46,301 nucleotides of DNA, taken from the NCBI GenBank assembly GCA_001799795.1, contig MGUD01000025.1, positions 1 through 46,301 on the forward strand. Direction: 5' to 3'. Below the pieces are notes generated by a model. That model worked only from the letters and a program-made list of their open reading frames with translations, did not search any database and was not told the DNA's origin. The position numbers were made by a program, and so were the translations under genes. Below are positions 10,512-46,301 of the stretch, in pieces. This DNA is from Elusimicrobia bacterium GWC2_61_19. Its GTDB lineage: Bacteria; Elusimicrobiota; Elusimicrobia; Elusimicrobiales; UBA9959. How positions within the stretch are numbered: position 1 is the first letter of the stretch; each line of letters begins with the position of its first letter.

Positions 10512-11414
10512 CTACTTCCCGGTTACTTCGTGGCCGCCGAACTCGTTGCGCAGCGCGGCCGACAGCCGGTCGCCGAAATCGTCCTTCATCTGCGAACGGA
10601 AGCGTTTGAAAAGCGAGACGGAAATAGCGGGCAGGGGCACGCCCAGGCGCGCCGCTTCCTCCACGGTCCAGCGGCCCTCGCCGGAATCAGGAACCACGCC
10701 TTCCACTTTTTCAAGTTTTGGGTCCTTGTCGAAAGCGTTTTGGGCCAGTTCAAGCAGCCAGGAGCGGATCACGCTGCCGCGGTTCCAGACCGAAGCCAGT
10801 TCCGCCATGTCGATGTCGCCGAAGGGGGAGGCCTTCAGCAGTTCGAAGCCCTCGCCGTAGGCTTCCATCATGGCGTACTCGATGCCGTTGTGCACCATTT
10901 TGGTGAAATGGCCGGCGCCGGACCCGCCGCAGTGCATATAGCCGCCTTCCTGGCACAGGGCTTTAAGAAAGGGTTCCGCTTTCCGGAACGAAGTTTCCGT
11001 CCCTCCGGTCATTATGCAGTAGCCTTTTTCCAAGCCCCAGATTCCGCCTGAGACGCCGGCGTCCAGGAAGTCTATCCCCATTTCAGCCGCTTTTTCTGAG
11101 CGGCGCACCGCGTCATGCCAGTTGCCGTTGGCGCCGTCTATTATCATGTCGCCTTTGCGCAGCAGCGAGAGCAGCCCGAGAAAAAGCGTTTCGGTGGGCT
11201 GGCCGGCCGGCAGCATCATCCAAACGACGCAGGGCTCCGTCAGTTTTGAAAAAAGTTCGGTAAGCGTGGCGGCCGGGATGACGCCCTTATCCGCAAGCGC
11301 GGCGGCCTTTTCCGGCGTGCGGTTCCAGACCACGGGCGTGATCCCCTTGGCGGCCAGGCGCAGCGCCATGTTGGCCCCCATCCGTCCCATCCCGGCAATA
11401 GCAATAGAATGCAT
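10512..11414 (-). CDS. gnd: 6-phosphogluconate dehydrogenase, decarboxylating (short form)
   Basis: Converts 6-phosphogluconate to ribulose-5-phosphate and CO2, reducing NAD(P). At 300 residues it belongs to the short class rather than the roughly 470-residue E. coli type. The dinucleotide fold has GMGRMG at 8-13, and NRT at 31-33, where Asn-Arg at the end of strand 2 suggests NADP use. Substrate and catalytic motifs are DAGVSGGIWGLEKGY (118-132) and HFTKMVHNGIEYAMM, with catalytic K172 and N176. The start follows a GGGGGAC ribosome-binding site. Upstream, between this gene and tkt, is a 181-bp fold-back repeat. zwf follows after 30 bp. Confidence 0.94.
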   Translation of the reverse strand: MHSIAIAGMGRMGANMALRLAAKGITPVVWNRTPEKAAALADKGVIPAATLTELFSKLTEPCVVWMMLPAGQPTETLFLGLLSLLRKGDMIIDGANGNWHDAVRRSEKAAEMGIDFLDAGVSGGIWGLEKGYCIMTGGTETSFRKAEPFLKALCQEGGYMHCGGSGAGHFTKMVHNGIEYAMMEAYGEGFELLKASPFGDIDMAELASVWNRGSVIRSWLLELAQNAFDKDPKLEKVEGVVPDSGEGRWTVEEAARLGVPLPAISVSLFKRFRSQMKDDFGDRLSAALRNEFGGHEVTGK

Positions 11415-11447
11415 ATATTGTCCCCCTGAAAAACTGTGTGTTATCTT

Positions 11448-11628
11448 GCGTCTTTGCCAAGAAACGCGAGATGCGAAGTCGGGTTGGCCAGGGTATGGGC
11501 CCGTCGGGCACGGGGTCGGGACACACCGTGCCCGCCCCTCCTCTCTCAGTCGCCGCGCTTACGTAAGCGGCTCCTTCCGAGAGGGCCCGCCGAACCCATA
11601 CCCTGGCCAGCCCTCCGGGCAAAGACGC
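11448..11628. repeat. 181-bp fold-back intergenic repeat, copy 1
   Basis: The element is bounded by perfect 11-base inverted ends, GCGTCTTTGCC (11448-11458) and GGCAAAGACGC (11618-11628). Nested pairs lie inside: GGCCAGGGTATGGG (11486-11499) with its complement at 11595-11608, CGGGCACGG (11505-11513) with CCGTGCCCG (11526-11534), CCTCTC (11540-11545) with GAGAGG (11579-11584), and a central 14-base palindrome CGCTTACGTAAGCG (11556-11569). The left half recurs at 46223-46301 with long identical stretches, so this is a dispersed element. It sits 12 bp beyond the tkt stop and 33 bp before the gnd start, inside an otherwise tight cluster. It carries no gene. It may be a small non-autonomous (MITE-like) element, or a structured RNA that attenuates tkt-gnd read-through. 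No target-site duplication is evident. Confidence 0.85.
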
Positions 11629-11640
11629 GGTGTAACTAAA

Positions 11641-13605
11641 TTACTTTACCAACTTCTTGGCGGCGGCGGCTATTTTTTCCGCCGTCAGGCCCAGCGCGGC
11701 GTACACTTGGCCGGCCGGCGCCGACTTGCCGAAAGTCTCCACGCCGATAGTCTCCACCTCGGTTCCCACCAGTTCCGTCCAGCCGATGCTGCGGCCGGCT
11801 TCCACCGCCAGCTTGGGCAGGTTGGGCAGGAATACCGAATCCCTGTAGGCCTTGTCCTGCTCGCGGAACAGCTCGAACGAGGGGACTGAAATTATGCGCG
11901 CCGCTATCCCGTCCTTCTCCAGCAGGGCCGCGGCCTCGAAAAGCAGGGACACTTCCGAGCCGGAAGCTATCAGCTCTATCGACGGCACCGTGGACGGGCC
12001 GCGCAGCAGGTAGGCGCCGCGCTTCAGGCCGGCCGCTATCTTCTCCCGGTACTGCGTCATCAGCGGCAGCTTCTGGCGCGACAGGGCCAGGCAGGCCGGG
12101 CGTTTGGAGCGCACCGCCAGTTCCCAGGCGTAAAGCGTTTCCCAGGCGTCCGCCGGGCGCAGCACCAGCAGGCCCGGTATCAGCCGCAGGCTCATCAGGT
12201 GTTCCACCGGCTGGTGGGTGGGGCCGTCCTCGCCCACGCCTATGCTGTCGTGCGTGAACACGAACACCGCCGGCGTCTGCATTACGGCGGCCAGGCGCAG
12301 CGCCGGGCGCATATAGTCCGAGAACACCAGGAAGGTGGCGCCGAAAGGTATCAGCCCGCCGTGCAGCGCCAGGCCGTTGACGATGGCGCCCATGGCGTGC
12401 TCGCGTATGCCGAAGTGCAGCGTGCGCCCCGGCTCCTTTATGAAATCGGTCTTGGTGGAGGGGCCCAGGTCGGCCGAACCGCCGGTGAAGCCCGGCAGGG
12501 CGTCGGCCAGCAGGTTGATTACCTTGCCGCCGGCCTCGCGGGTGGCCATGGGTTTGTCAAAGAAGGTAGCGTCGGGGTTGAAGAGTCCTTCGGGGATCTC
12601 GCGGCCGAGCATGGCCTTGGCCAGCTCCGCCTTTTCCGGCAGCGCCACGGCGTAATTCTTCCAGAGCTTCAGCCAGCGCTTACGGTCCTTCTCGCCGGCG
12701 GCGGCCTGCTCGGCAAAGCGCGCCTTGGCTTCCTCGGGCACGAAGAACGGCTCGGTGGAAGGCCAGTTCAGCGCTTTCTTGGTGGCCAGTATCTCTTCGG
12801 GCTTGAGCGGCTCGCCGTGCACGGAATTTTTGTCCTGCTTGGGGCTGGCGAAACCGATATGGGTCCTGGCTATTATGATGGAAGGGGATTCGGTCTCGCG
12901 TTTGGCTTTCTTTATGGCGGAATCGATCTCGTCCAGGTCATTGCCGTTCTCAACTTCTATCACCTGCCAGTTCTGCGCCAGGAAGCGCTTTTTTACGTCT
13001 TCGGTGAAGGCCAGGCCGGTGGACCCCTCTATGGTGATGCCGTTGGAATCATAAAGGCAGATCAGTTTGCACAGCTTCATGGTGCCGGCGAGCGACGCCG
13101 CTTCGTAGGAGAGGCCTTCCATCAGGTCCCCGTCGCCGCACAGCACGTAGGTGAAATGGTCCACCAGCGCGAACTCCGGCGTGTTGAGCTTTTCGGCCAG
13201 AAGTTTTTCGGCCAGGGCCAGGCCCACGGCGTTGGCGAAGCCCTGCCCGAGCGGGCCGGTGGTGGTTTCCACGCCTTTGGTGTGGCGGTATTCCGGGTGG
13301 CCGGGGGTAAGACTATCGAGCTGGCGAAATTTCTTCAACTGGTCCATCTCAAGACCGTAGCCGTAGAGATGCAGCATGGAATAAAGCATGGAGGACCCGT
13401 GCCCGGCCGATAGCACGAAGCGGTCCCGGTCGAACCACTCGGGGTCGGAGGGGACGAATTTTAGGTGGCCGGCCCAGACGGCGTAGGCCAGCGGCGCGGC
13501 GCCCAGCGGCAGGCCGGGGTGGCCGCTGTCGGCCTGGCCGACCATGTCTATGGAAAGGGTCCTAATGGTGTTGACGCACAGGTTGTCGGTGGTATCGAAT
13601 TTCAT
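11641..13605 (-). CDS. tkt: Transketolase
   Basis: Thiamine-diphosphate enzyme that moves two-carbon units between sugar phosphates in the non-oxidative pentose phosphate pathway. The 654 residues match the family. Motifs are SGHPGLPLG at 27-35, AGHGSSMLY at 67-75, PGHPE at 101-105, the TPP/Mg site CGDGDLMEG at 156-164, and GIREHAMGAIVNG in the pyrimidine-binding half, followed by FVFTHDSIGVGEDGPTHQ. I chose ATG 13605 because it has GGAGC upstream, overlaps the nudix stop by 4 bp (ATGA) and starts at the conserved N-terminus; the frame is open further upstream only inside the nudix gene. The fold-back repeat lies 12 bp after the stop. Confidence 0.96.
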   Translation of the reverse strand: MKFDTTDNLCVNTIRTLSIDMVGQADSGHPGLPLGAAPLAYAVWAGHLKFVPSDPEWFDRDRFVLSAGHGSSMLYSMLHLYGYGLEMDQLKKFRQLDSLTPGHPEYRHTKGVETTTGPLGQGFANAVGLALAEKLLAEKLNTPEFALVDHFTYVLCGDGDLMEGLSYEAASLAGTMKLCKLICLYDSNGITIEGSTGLAFTEDVKKRFLAQNWQVIEVENGNDLDEIDSAIKKAKRETESPSIIIARTHIGFASPKQDKNSVHGEPLKPEEILATKKALNWPSTEPFFVPEEAKARFAEQAAAGEKDRKRWLKLWKNYAVALPEKAELAKAMLGREIPEGLFNPDATFFDKPMATREAGGKVINLLADALPGFTGGSADLGPSTKTDFIKEPGRTLHFGIREHAMGAIVNGLALHGGLIPFGATFLVFSDYMRPALRLAAVMQTPAVFVFTHDSIGVGEDGPTHQPVEHLMSLRLIPGLLVLRPADAWETLYAWELAVRSKRPACLALSRQKLPLMTQYREKIAAGLKRGAYLLRGPSTVPSIELIASGSEVSLLFEAAALLEKDGIAARIISVPSFELFREQDKAYRDSVFLPNLPKLAVEAGRSIGWTELVGTEVETIGVETFGKSAPAGQVYAALGLTAEKIAAAAKKLVK

Positions 13606-14168
13606 TTTTGCTCCAATAATTTTATTTTCCACGCCTGCAAAGCTATTATGGTCTTGGCGTCCTTTATGACGCCCTTCTTCACAAGTTCCCACGCTTTTCT
13701 AAAAGGGAGTATTTCCGTGTGAAGGAACTCGTCCTCGTCGGGGCTGGCCGTCCCGCCGCACAGCCCGGTGGCCGTAAAAATATGCAGCACCTCATTGGAG
13801 AAAGCGGTGGTAGGCCAAAATGAGATCAAAGGTTTAATGCTGGCGGCCGTATAGCCGGTCTCTTCCTTAAGCTCCGCCTTCACCCGGGCCAGCGGTTTGT
13901 CCGACCCCGAATTTAATTTTCCGGCGGGGATCTCCAGCGTCACTAATTTAACAGGATACCTGTACTGGTGCACGAACACAATGCGCCCATCGTCCAGCAC
14001 CGGCAGCACCGCCACGGCGCCCATATGGTCCATGAAAGCGCGCGTCGCCTTCTTCCCGTTGGGCAGCACCACCGTATCCGCCCTGAAATCCACCGTCCCG
14101 GAGAACACCACCCGCTTCCTGTGGAAATCCTCCCGCAGCCCGGCATGCCTGTCTTTCATATTCGCCAT
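13602..14168 (-). CDS. Nudix hydrolase, ADP-ribose pyrophosphatase-like, with variant box
   Basis: An 188-residue Nudix protein similar in layout to NudF-type ADP-ribose pyrophosphatases: an N-terminal strand segment (KRVVFSGTVDFRADTVVLP), then AVAVLPVLDDGRIVFVHQYRYP, then the Nudix box at about 93-115. The box reads GKLNSGSDKPLARVKAELKE, then ETGY. The core glutamates of the REUXEE part are kept, but the first box glutamate is Ser and the Arg before the catalytic Glu is Ala. It may hydrolyse ADP-ribose or another nucleotide diphosphate linked to sugar, which would suit a sugar-phosphate operon. It overlaps tkt by 4 bp and is the first gene of the operon. TATAAT lies seven bases before the ATG. 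Confidence 0.85.
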   Translation of the reverse strand: MANMKDRHAGLREDFHRKRVVFSGTVDFRADTVVLPNGKKATRAFMDHMGAVAVLPVLDDGRIVFVHQYRYPVKLVTLEIPAGKLNSGSDKPLARVKAELKEETGYTAASIKPLISFWPTTAFSNEVLHIFTATGLCGGTASPDEDEFLHTEILPFRKAWELVKKGVIKDAKTIIALQAWKIKLLEQK

Positions 14169-26907: not shown

Positions 26908-26999
26908 AGGGGACGCTCTTAGTTAATTAGTTTTTGGATGGTTCAGGTTATGGGGCAATCTTAGTTGCTGAAAAAACTAATTAACTAAGAGCGTCCCCT
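26908..26999. repeat. 28-bp perfect inverted repeat between the flavoprotein gene and mtgA
   Basis: Arms at 26908-26935 and 26972-26999 are perfect complements over 28 bases, with a 36-base loop. Each arm joins a GC-rich part (AGGGGACGCTCTTAG) to an AT-rich part (TTAATTAGTTTTT). The stop codon of the upstream flavoprotein gene lies inside the right arm, and its last four codons also come from the repeat. The left arm ends three bases before the mtgA start. The GGGGACG-type terminus resembles REP-like palindromes mobilised by REP-associated tyrosine transposases, but no transposase is present. It would form a very stable RNA hairpin that could block or attenuate transcription into mtgA. Confidence 0.9.
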
Positions 27000-46222: not shown

Positions 46223-46301
46223 GCGTCTTTGCCTGAAGACCGCAAGATGCAAAGTCGGTCTTGGCAGGGTATGGGCCCGTCGGGCACGGGGTCGGGACAC
46301 A
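46223..46301 (+). repeat. Fold-back intergenic repeat, copy 2 (left half; cut by window end)
   Basis: Begins with the same GCGTCTTTGCC terminus as the element at 11448-11628 and matches it over the whole 79 visible bases with a single one-base length difference. The last 36 bases (AGGGTATGGGCCCGTCGGGC..., ending GACACA) are identical. Divergence is concentrated in the 20 or so bases after the terminus. The flanking sequences of the two copies do not match, so the boundary at GCGTCT is sharp. The right half lies outside the window. This copy follows the wecA-like stop by 24 bp, while copy 1 follows the tkt stop by 12 bp. Confidence 0.85.

What the first reader, a model, noticed from the sequence alone, without database searches (positions are those of the whole stretch)
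11448..11628. Dispersed 181-bp fold-back element with nested hairpins, placed directly after stop codons
Seen: perfect 11-base inverted ends, several nested inverted arms and a central 14-base palindrome, with no gene inside. A second copy starts at 46223 with a sharp boundary, and the last 36 bases visible there are identical. Both copies lie 12-24 bp past a stop codon, one of them inside the tkt-gnd spacer of an otherwise tight cluster. Inference: a non-autonomous mobile palindrome or a structured RNA that tunes read-through. I know of no named family that it matches.
Basis: partly seen in the sequence, partly recalled or inferred. Interest (0 to 1): 0.75.

Follow-up and report, generated by a model that had tools for sequence, protein, structure and literature searches.

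The report
Giant folding repeats of Elusimicrobiota
The 181-base block is one of many scattered, gene-free repeats in a little-known group of bacteria; the copies fold into the same three-armed shape although the bases in their stems differ, and they behave like mobile repeats but fit no family I could find described.

Summary
The block is one copy of a large family. A covariance model finds 25, 47, 71 and 101 copies in four genomes of the genus and matches in 55 of 340 Elusimicrobiota genomes, 32 of 32 of the genus among them. Each unit is a long stem closing a three-way junction with two hairpins. The stems are private yet complementary: 543 doubly changed pair cells against 174 in shuffles. 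Copies lie almost only between genes, a median of 33 nt from a stop codon, in both orientations. The new point: close pairs are inverted with one polarity, 44 of 44 distinct sequences. In some copies an outer 'shell' encloses a second, different core. This is how REP/REPIN repeats behave, but the unit is several times larger, shows no GTAG or CGTC tag, and none of 30 Y1 transposase loci carries it. I read it as a non-autonomous mobile structured repeat with an unknown mobiliser. A cis-acting RNA that tunes read-through is not supported: orientation is nearly random and no terminator is predicted.

The parts
11448..11628 (+). whole element, 181 bp, with outer stem P0
   Evidence: CM R1 matches 11478-11616 at 118.6 bits
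11448..11458 (+). outer stem P0, left arm (present in some copies only)
   Evidence: perfect 11-bp inverted repeat; compensated as GCATCTTTGC/GCAAAGATGC in G014
11618..11628 (+). outer stem P0, right arm
11465..11480 (+). leader CGCGAGATG-NNN-AGTC ('shell', left), present in part of the copies
   Evidence: left boundary (98 occurrences, 10 of them not element-like); with the following GGG in 23 of 32 genus genomes, reversed control 0; AGTCG near the expected place in 29 of 145 and AGTCG followed by G, T or A in 49 of 88 copies chosen by BLAST
11481..11509 (+). long stem P1, left arm
   Evidence: arm-swap test
11512..11538 (+). hairpin A with tip CACACCGTG
   Evidence: fold; columns 38-64 of alignment A1; tip in 87 of 88 BLAST-chosen copies
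11543..11583 (+). hairpin B with tip GCTTACGTAAGC (14-base palindrome at 11556-11569)
   Evidence: fold; tip in 84 of 88 BLAST-chosen copies
11585..11613 (+). long stem P1, right arm
11614..11617 (+). TCCG, right edge of the shell
   Evidence: read
46223..46301 (+). left 79 bp of a second copy, cut by the end of the window and then by N
   Evidence: G014 has an element at the orthologous place (CM match L268:13705-13813; synteny)
11641..13692 (-). tkt, transketolase, ends 12 bp from the element
   Evidence: Pfam
10512..11414 (-). gnd, 6-phosphogluconate dehydrogenase, starts 33 bp beyond the element
   Evidence: Pfam; ORF

Best explanation
The block is one copy of a family of non-autonomous, self-folding mobile repeats of Elusimicrobiota. 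Shown: the common unit is a long stem (P1) that closes a three-way junction with two hairpins; within the genus the hairpin tips hardly vary, while the stems differ from copy to copy but stay complementary; part of the copies, this one included, add a 16-nt leader and an outer stem (P0); copies lie almost only between genes, mostly just after stop codons, in both orientations, alone or as inverted pairs of one polarity; in one lineage many copies are nearly identical. Inferred: the unit, or the inverted pair, is moved or copied by an enzyme acting in trans that reads the folded single strand (shape and tips) rather than the stem sequence, much as Y1 enzymes read REP sequences. Inferred: the stems are kept complementary by selection on the fold together with copying of one arm from the other during replication (template switching), which would also explain why interiors are swapped or inverted inside a conserved outer stem. 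Inferred: the 3'-end location reflects tolerance (promoters and coding regions are purged); any effect on the 3' ends of mRNAs is secondary.
For: Copy number and spread. Structure: 93.9% of cells paired against 74.4% in shuffles and 26.8-57.6% when slid; covariation score 0.502 against 0.160, 0 of 500 shuffles. Own arms pair better than swapped arms, mean score 17.4 against 7.9; in 84 of 145 copies no other copy's arm does as well. Inverted pairs: 44 of 44 pairs of distinct sequence with a gap of at most 130 bp are + then -; p = 3e-27 if the four orientations were equally likely and the pairs independent, which orthologous pairs are not. Context: of 176 copies 14 lack a called gene on one side; of the other 162, 116 are tandem, 34 convergent, 9 divergent, 3 overlap a called gene (p = 6e-6 against junction counts). 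Occupied and empty orthologous sites: 43 'absent' among 217 pairwise comparisons, not independent; examples, one of them a whole doublet (G016:C13 about 46.9-47.3 kb against a short spacer in G014). Lineage amplification: 10 copies of G019 average 0.90 identity to each other and 0.89 to those of the similar genome G026, but 0.74-0.77 to those of G000, G016 and G014 and 0.80 to G003 (copies picked by BLAST rank). Arm copying: a 218-bp palindrome of score 99 in contig C25 at 98622-98839, where the orthologue in G014 has two different halves.
Against: No mobiliser was found: 0 of 30 Y1 loci carry the unit, and among 583 proteins near 176 elements the 14 largest clusters showed, by eye, no transposase (smaller clusters not inspected, no Pfam scan). 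No target-site duplication was visible at the empty sites; flanks were mostly about 71-92% identical, so a short one could be missed. Some positions look old: the three sites of contig C25 that fall in parts aligned with G014 all have a copy at the orthologous place, so present activity is not shown. Inverted and same-way copies at orthologous junctions are equally similar (0.75 and 0.77), so flips and independent insertions cannot be told apart. Covariation and constant tips could also come from a functional RNA.
Confidence: 0.6

Rival explanations
1. A multicopy structured RNA (acting in trans, or in the mRNA) under selection; its copies spread by duplication or conversion. The functional strand would be the one that reads CACGGTGTG.
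For: Strong covariation and near-constant tips. The minus strand folds better in 140 of 145 copies, by 10.5 kcal/mol on average, and in 22 of 25 copies from outside the genus; in P1 the plus strand shows 479 A.C against 217 G.T oppositions, which are G.U on the minus strand.
Against: Orientation to the flanking genes is close to random, 70:46 with p = 0.03; no promoter found at the tkt-gnd copy. The strand difference may partly be base composition (the minus strand is G-rich); I did not correct for it. In hairpins A and B cells changed on one side only are nearly absent (0 or 1 per pair), unlike stepwise compensation through G.U. Whether the copies prefer certain kinds of genes was not tested.
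Confidence: 0.2
2. A genuine REP/REPIN system moved by the Y1 (RAYT-like) transposases of these genomes.
For: Y1 transposases in 27 of 32 genus genomes; inverted doublets, 3'-end location and a strand-specific fold as described for REPs (PMC3733652, PMC3116915, PMC8266576; passages).
Against: Five genus genomes with copies lack a Y1 match, among them G016 (47 copies; about 91% complete). None of the 30 Y1 loci examined has a unit within about 1.5 kb, even at E <= 1; the other listed Y1 matches were not examined. The unit is several times larger than a REP, and GTAG or CGTC are not clearly more frequent in its arms than in shuffles.
Confidence: 0.1
3. A transcription terminator or 3'-end stabiliser kept by selection at gene ends.
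For: Very stable hairpin close to stop codons.
Against: No T-run at this copy (other copies not scanned). It occurs between tkt and gnd and at junctions where relatives have overlapping stop and start codons. In G014 a sequence that reads like an ordinary terminator follows one copy a few tens of bases downstream. Related species lack the unit at the same junction.
Confidence: 0.1

Closest known systems
REP / REPIN (BIME) repeats with RAYT/TnpA-REP
   Same: Intergenic palindromes in many copies, singly or as inverted dimers with a spacer, mostly between tandem or convergent genes close to 3' ends; heterodimers exist; one folded strand is what the enzyme reads (PMC3733652 abstract and passages; PMC3116915 and PMC8266576 passages).
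   Different: REPs are 20-40 bp with one hairpin, a GTAG or CGTC tag and, for GTAG, an association with Y1 genes. Here the unit is 139-181 bp with a three-way junction, private stems, no such tag found and no linked Y1 gene found.
bcr1-bcr18 repeats of the Bacillus cereus group
   Same: Intergenic repeat families, some MITE-like and some with conserved RNA structure, often in UTRs and operon spacers (PMC3446304, passages).
   Different: bcr1 is described as specific to the B. cereus group (title in that paper's reference list). I know of no private-stem three-way junction or one-polarity pairs there (recalled, not compared).
ERIC / intergenic repeat units of enterobacteria
   Same: About 127-bp imperfect intergenic palindromes in transcribed regions (recalled, no call).
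   Different: Known so far from other phyla (recalled). Neither sequence nor architecture was compared directly; the unit has no hit in plasmids or phages.
Integron attC sites
   Same: Imperfect palindromes with private arms, read as folded single strands (recalled; integron integrases are named in PMC8266576 passages as reading folded single strands).
   Different: Neighbours here include syntenic housekeeping genes such as tkt-gnd, not cassettes; no integrase search was made.

Membership tests
REP/REPIN | unit of 20-40 bp, single hairpin | tested here: not met
   139-181 bp, two hairpins on a long stem
REP/REPIN | GTAG or CGTC tag at one end of the hairpin | tested here: not met
   145 copies: GTAG in 2 right-arm and 13 left-arm regions (shuffles 5.8 and 18.7); CGTC in 40 right-arm regions (shuffles 33.0), mostly at one fixed place inside the stem, so a CGTC relic in a minority is not excluded
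REP/REPIN | inverted dimers | tested here: met
   44 of 44 close pairs of distinct sequence inverted, one polarity; many copies are single
REP/REPIN | cognate Y1 transposase gene flanked by the repeat | tested here: not met
   0 of 30 Y1 loci; not all listed Y1 matches were examined
REP/REPIN | doublet members more conserved than singlets | not tested
   -
REP/REPIN | intergenic, near 3' ends of genes | tested here: met
   159 of 162 scorable copies intergenic, median 33 nt to a stop
MITE | terminal inverted repeats and target-site duplication | tested here: inconclusive
   no duplication seen at empty sites with flanks of mostly about 71-92% identity
MITE | related autonomous element with transposase | tested here: inconclusive
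   no transposase, by eye, between inverted copies in the 5 cases 425-1280 bp apart nor in the 14 largest protein clusters nearby; genomes not searched as a whole for it
known Rfam family | match at or near the gathering score | tested here: not met
   0 at gathering in the window; E <= 1 on five loci gave two hits far below their thresholds
intrinsic terminator | G+C-rich hairpin followed by T-run | tested here: not met
   0 found on either strand of 11380-11700
Integron attC | R'/R'' boxes and a linked integrase | not tested
   no integrase search

The most novel reading that the evidence does not exclude
A new kind of shape-read mobile element: an enzyme not yet known moves single-stranded three-way junctions whose two hairpin tips are the recognition code, while the stems carry no information and are rewritten arm from arm. 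Different cores (I and II) can occupy one shell, so cores are exchangeable, and the system is old, reaching several families of Elusimicrobiota and perhaps a second class.
Probability: 0.25. Interest if true: 0.85.

Novelty: new variant of a known kind. Interest (0 to 1): 0.68.

Why it matters
These are among the largest and most elaborate REP-like units I know of (recalled comparison), they are numerous (101 model matches in one genome), and they have a structure that can be traced across families. If they move, an enzyme that reads them must exist in Elusimicrobiota and has not been identified. If they do not, they are a strong covariation signal without a function in that phylum. They also offer a natural test of how palindromes keep their arms complementary: by selection or by template switching. 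Practically, such repeats may break assemblies of these genomes and mislead RNA-discovery pipelines.

Tried and rejected
Rfam, plasmids and phages gave no relative (one query each for plasmids and phages). In viral contigs the core pattern gave none and the leader pattern gave two matches that I judge to be chance by reading. Mobiliser: Y1 transposases were tested and not linked; GGGGACG hairpins near part of these loci suggest that they serve another repeat. Autonomous copy: five inverted pairs 425-1280 bp apart hold no transposase by eye. Strand selection: the G.U / A.C asymmetry was left as suggestive because base composition was not controlled. Flips against independent insertions could not be separated. 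A gap scan of contig alignments found no element, I think because the aligner spread its gaps. Papers: seven searches, four of which held a term for Elusimicrobia; their listings showed nothing on such repeats, and none of the listed Elusimicrobia papers was opened. Opened: passages of PMC3733652 (plus abstract and outline), PMC3116915, PMC8266576 and PMC3446304.

Corrected on checking: the leader is not general (29 of 145 and 49 of 88 copies), and the tag test was run only then.

Rows dropped: only loci with two or more model hits were entered; one weak hit of L105 that overlaps another on the opposite strand was left out; pairs identical in their middle were counted once; loci L208-L221 and most others beyond the 196 sources were not given. 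In one search, 94 of the 108 less redundant copies (from 171) were aligned; of the 14 left out most carry internal inserts. One search left out copies under 80 bits or with N.

Full report
OBSERVATION. The block is as described: perfect 11-base ends, nested arms, a 14-base palindrome, and a second copy whose visible part ends in 37 identical bases. It folds far better than shuffles (z = -9.7). It lies between transketolase and 6-phosphogluconate dehydrogenase, with glucose-6-phosphate dehydrogenase beyond.

FAMILY. BLAST with the element gives 13 places at E < 1e-9 in the window's own genome (1.36 Mb, 66% complete), this copy and the cut second copy included, and at least one match at E <= 0.001 in 32 of 32 genomes of the genus, 1 of 5 from the same family outside it and 0 of 24 from another family of the order. 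A covariance model (R1) from 94 copies finds 25 (G000), 71 (G014), 47 (G016) and 101 (G019) matches at E <= 0.001; only 150 of 1,159-2,919 candidates per genome were scored. In 340 genomes of the phylum, with at most 9 candidates scored each, 55 match at E <= 1e-4: 32 of the genus, 16 of five other genera of the family, 6 of four other families of the class and 1 weak match in another class (G338, 6.5e-5). In 12 genomes taken more fully, matches ranged from 1 to 43. Equal contig lengths suggest that G016 is UBA11697 and G014 is GWA2_61_42.

ANATOMY. The unit in plus orientation is: [outer stem P0, in some copies] - [leader CGCGAGATG-NNN-AGTC, in some] - long stem P1 - hairpin A (tip CACACCGTG) - hairpin B (tip GCTTACGYAAGC) - P1' - [TCCG] - [P0']. 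Among 88 copies picked by BLAST rather than by tips, tip A is exact in 87 and tip B fits in 84. The 94 aligned copies were picked by their tips, so for them only the stems are a fair test: on 30 pairs 93.9% of cells pair (shuffles 74.4%, slid structures 26.8-57.6%), with 543 doubly changed cells (shuffles 174) and a score of 0.502 (0.160) (fold; for the number of pairs with a double change 11 of 500 shuffles reached the observed 22). Left arms pair with their own right arms much better than with others' (17.4 against 7.9). Where the leader occurs it begins sharply: the bases upstream carry almost no information (98 occurrences, 10 of them not element-like). Its pattern occurs in 23 of 32 genus genomes, its reversed control in none. 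A leader word AGTCG near the expected place is found in 29 of 145 less redundant copies, and a near variant GTTCG in 16. Distant members keep P1, the junction and two hairpins but change the tips, so the model, not the tips, links them.

EXCHANGEABLE CORES. Of 31 distinct leader occurrences in 30 loci, by my reading, 13 hold core I forward, 3 core I reversed, 10 a different core (II) or part of it, 1 a degenerate core I, 1 a mixture and 3 none. Core II has the same plan: 9 copies give 38 pairs, 19 with double changes. Small hairpins (CACTGCAG-, AGAAAGTG-) sit at different points of some copies.

ARRANGEMENT. Among 253 model hits on 196 sources I took the loci with two or more. Of 52 neighbouring pairs of distinct sequence within 2 kb, 44 are at most 130 bp apart and all 44 run + then -, right ends facing; the other 8 are 5 +-, 1 ++, 1 -- and 1 -+. 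Gaps run from -3 to 117 bp, 16 of 44 between 44 and 52. Some pairs are orthologous, so they are not all independent. A doublet in G016 is absent as a whole from G014, whose orthologous spacer is short.

CONTEXT. Of 176 core-I copies found by pattern, 14 lack a called gene on one side, 116 lie between tandem, 34 between convergent and 9 between divergent genes, and 3 overlap a called gene; median distance to the nearest stop 33 nt over 150 copies. Among 1,027 junctions in 134 loci 817 are tandem, 104 convergent and 106 divergent (p = 6e-6). Genes were called by a small codon-usage script of mine, not by a standard caller. Orientation in tandem spacers is 70:46 (p = 0.03). At the tkt-gnd junction, by reading, the element is reversed in G000 and G001, forward in G016, G014, G025 and G017, and missing in G003, G009, G002 and G011; G022 has another hairpin, and most other genomes have another gene or a contig end there. 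In 217 pairwise comparisons of orthologous junctions, which are not independent, 90 agree in orientation, 34 are inverted, 43 lack the element and 50 hold another insert.

HOW IT LIKELY WORKS. Amplified near-identical copies in G019 and G026, occupied and empty sites and whole-doublet presence or absence speak for dispersal. The one polarity of pairs and the folded single strand recall REPINs, whose doublets are proposed as the replicating unit and whose kin Y1 enzymes read as folded single strands (PMC3116915, PMC8266576; passages). But the Y1 genes examined here are not linked to it and no tag is found, so membership fails while the likeness of behaviour stands. The complementary but private stems need a cause: selection on the fold, arm copying, or both. 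The 218-bp palindrome in contig C25, where one half looks like an inverted copy of the other while G014 keeps two different halves, suggests that arm copying happens at least sometimes. The near absence of one-sided changes in hairpins A and B fits that or exchange of whole hairpins.

LIMITS. Genomes are draft assemblies. Copies were picked by similarity to the window's element or by its tips. Counts of copies and pairs are not corrected for phylogeny. No model control was run outside the phylum. The mobiliser and target duplications were not found; transcripts could not be tested.

Noticed in passing
window 26908-26999; also L252:18347-18432 and L253:98-157: A second repeat family: hairpins with GGGGACG...CGTCCCC ends and an AT-rich stem, three in contig C25. 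GGGGACG is about twice as dense in the 30 Y1 transposase loci as in 114 other loci (0.38 against 0.16 per kb), so this may be their REP.
   Followed up: partly
L254:12321-12538 (G000:C25:98622-98839): A near-perfect 218-bp palindrome formed by two inverted element halves (score 99); the G014 orthologue has two different halves.
   Followed up: partly
L354, L374, L355 (genus g60 of another family): Three of four related elements carry the same downstream stretch with TTATCCACA, which looks like a DnaA box (motif recalled).
   Followed up: no
L061, L081, L091, L215 and others: Small private-stem hairpins starting CACTGCAG or AGAAAGTG are inserted at different points inside the elements.
   Followed up: no
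L308:1500-1750: A core-I element appears nested inside a core-II hairpin.
   Followed up: no
right arm of P1, about 36-38 nt after hairpin B: CGTC recurs at one fixed place inside the stem in a minority of copies; whether this is a relic of a CGTC-tagged REP was not tested.
   Followed up: no
G000:C25:46302-46449: The second copy runs into a stretch of N, and L012 has N inside its element; some copies in other genomes lie at contig ends.
   Followed up: no
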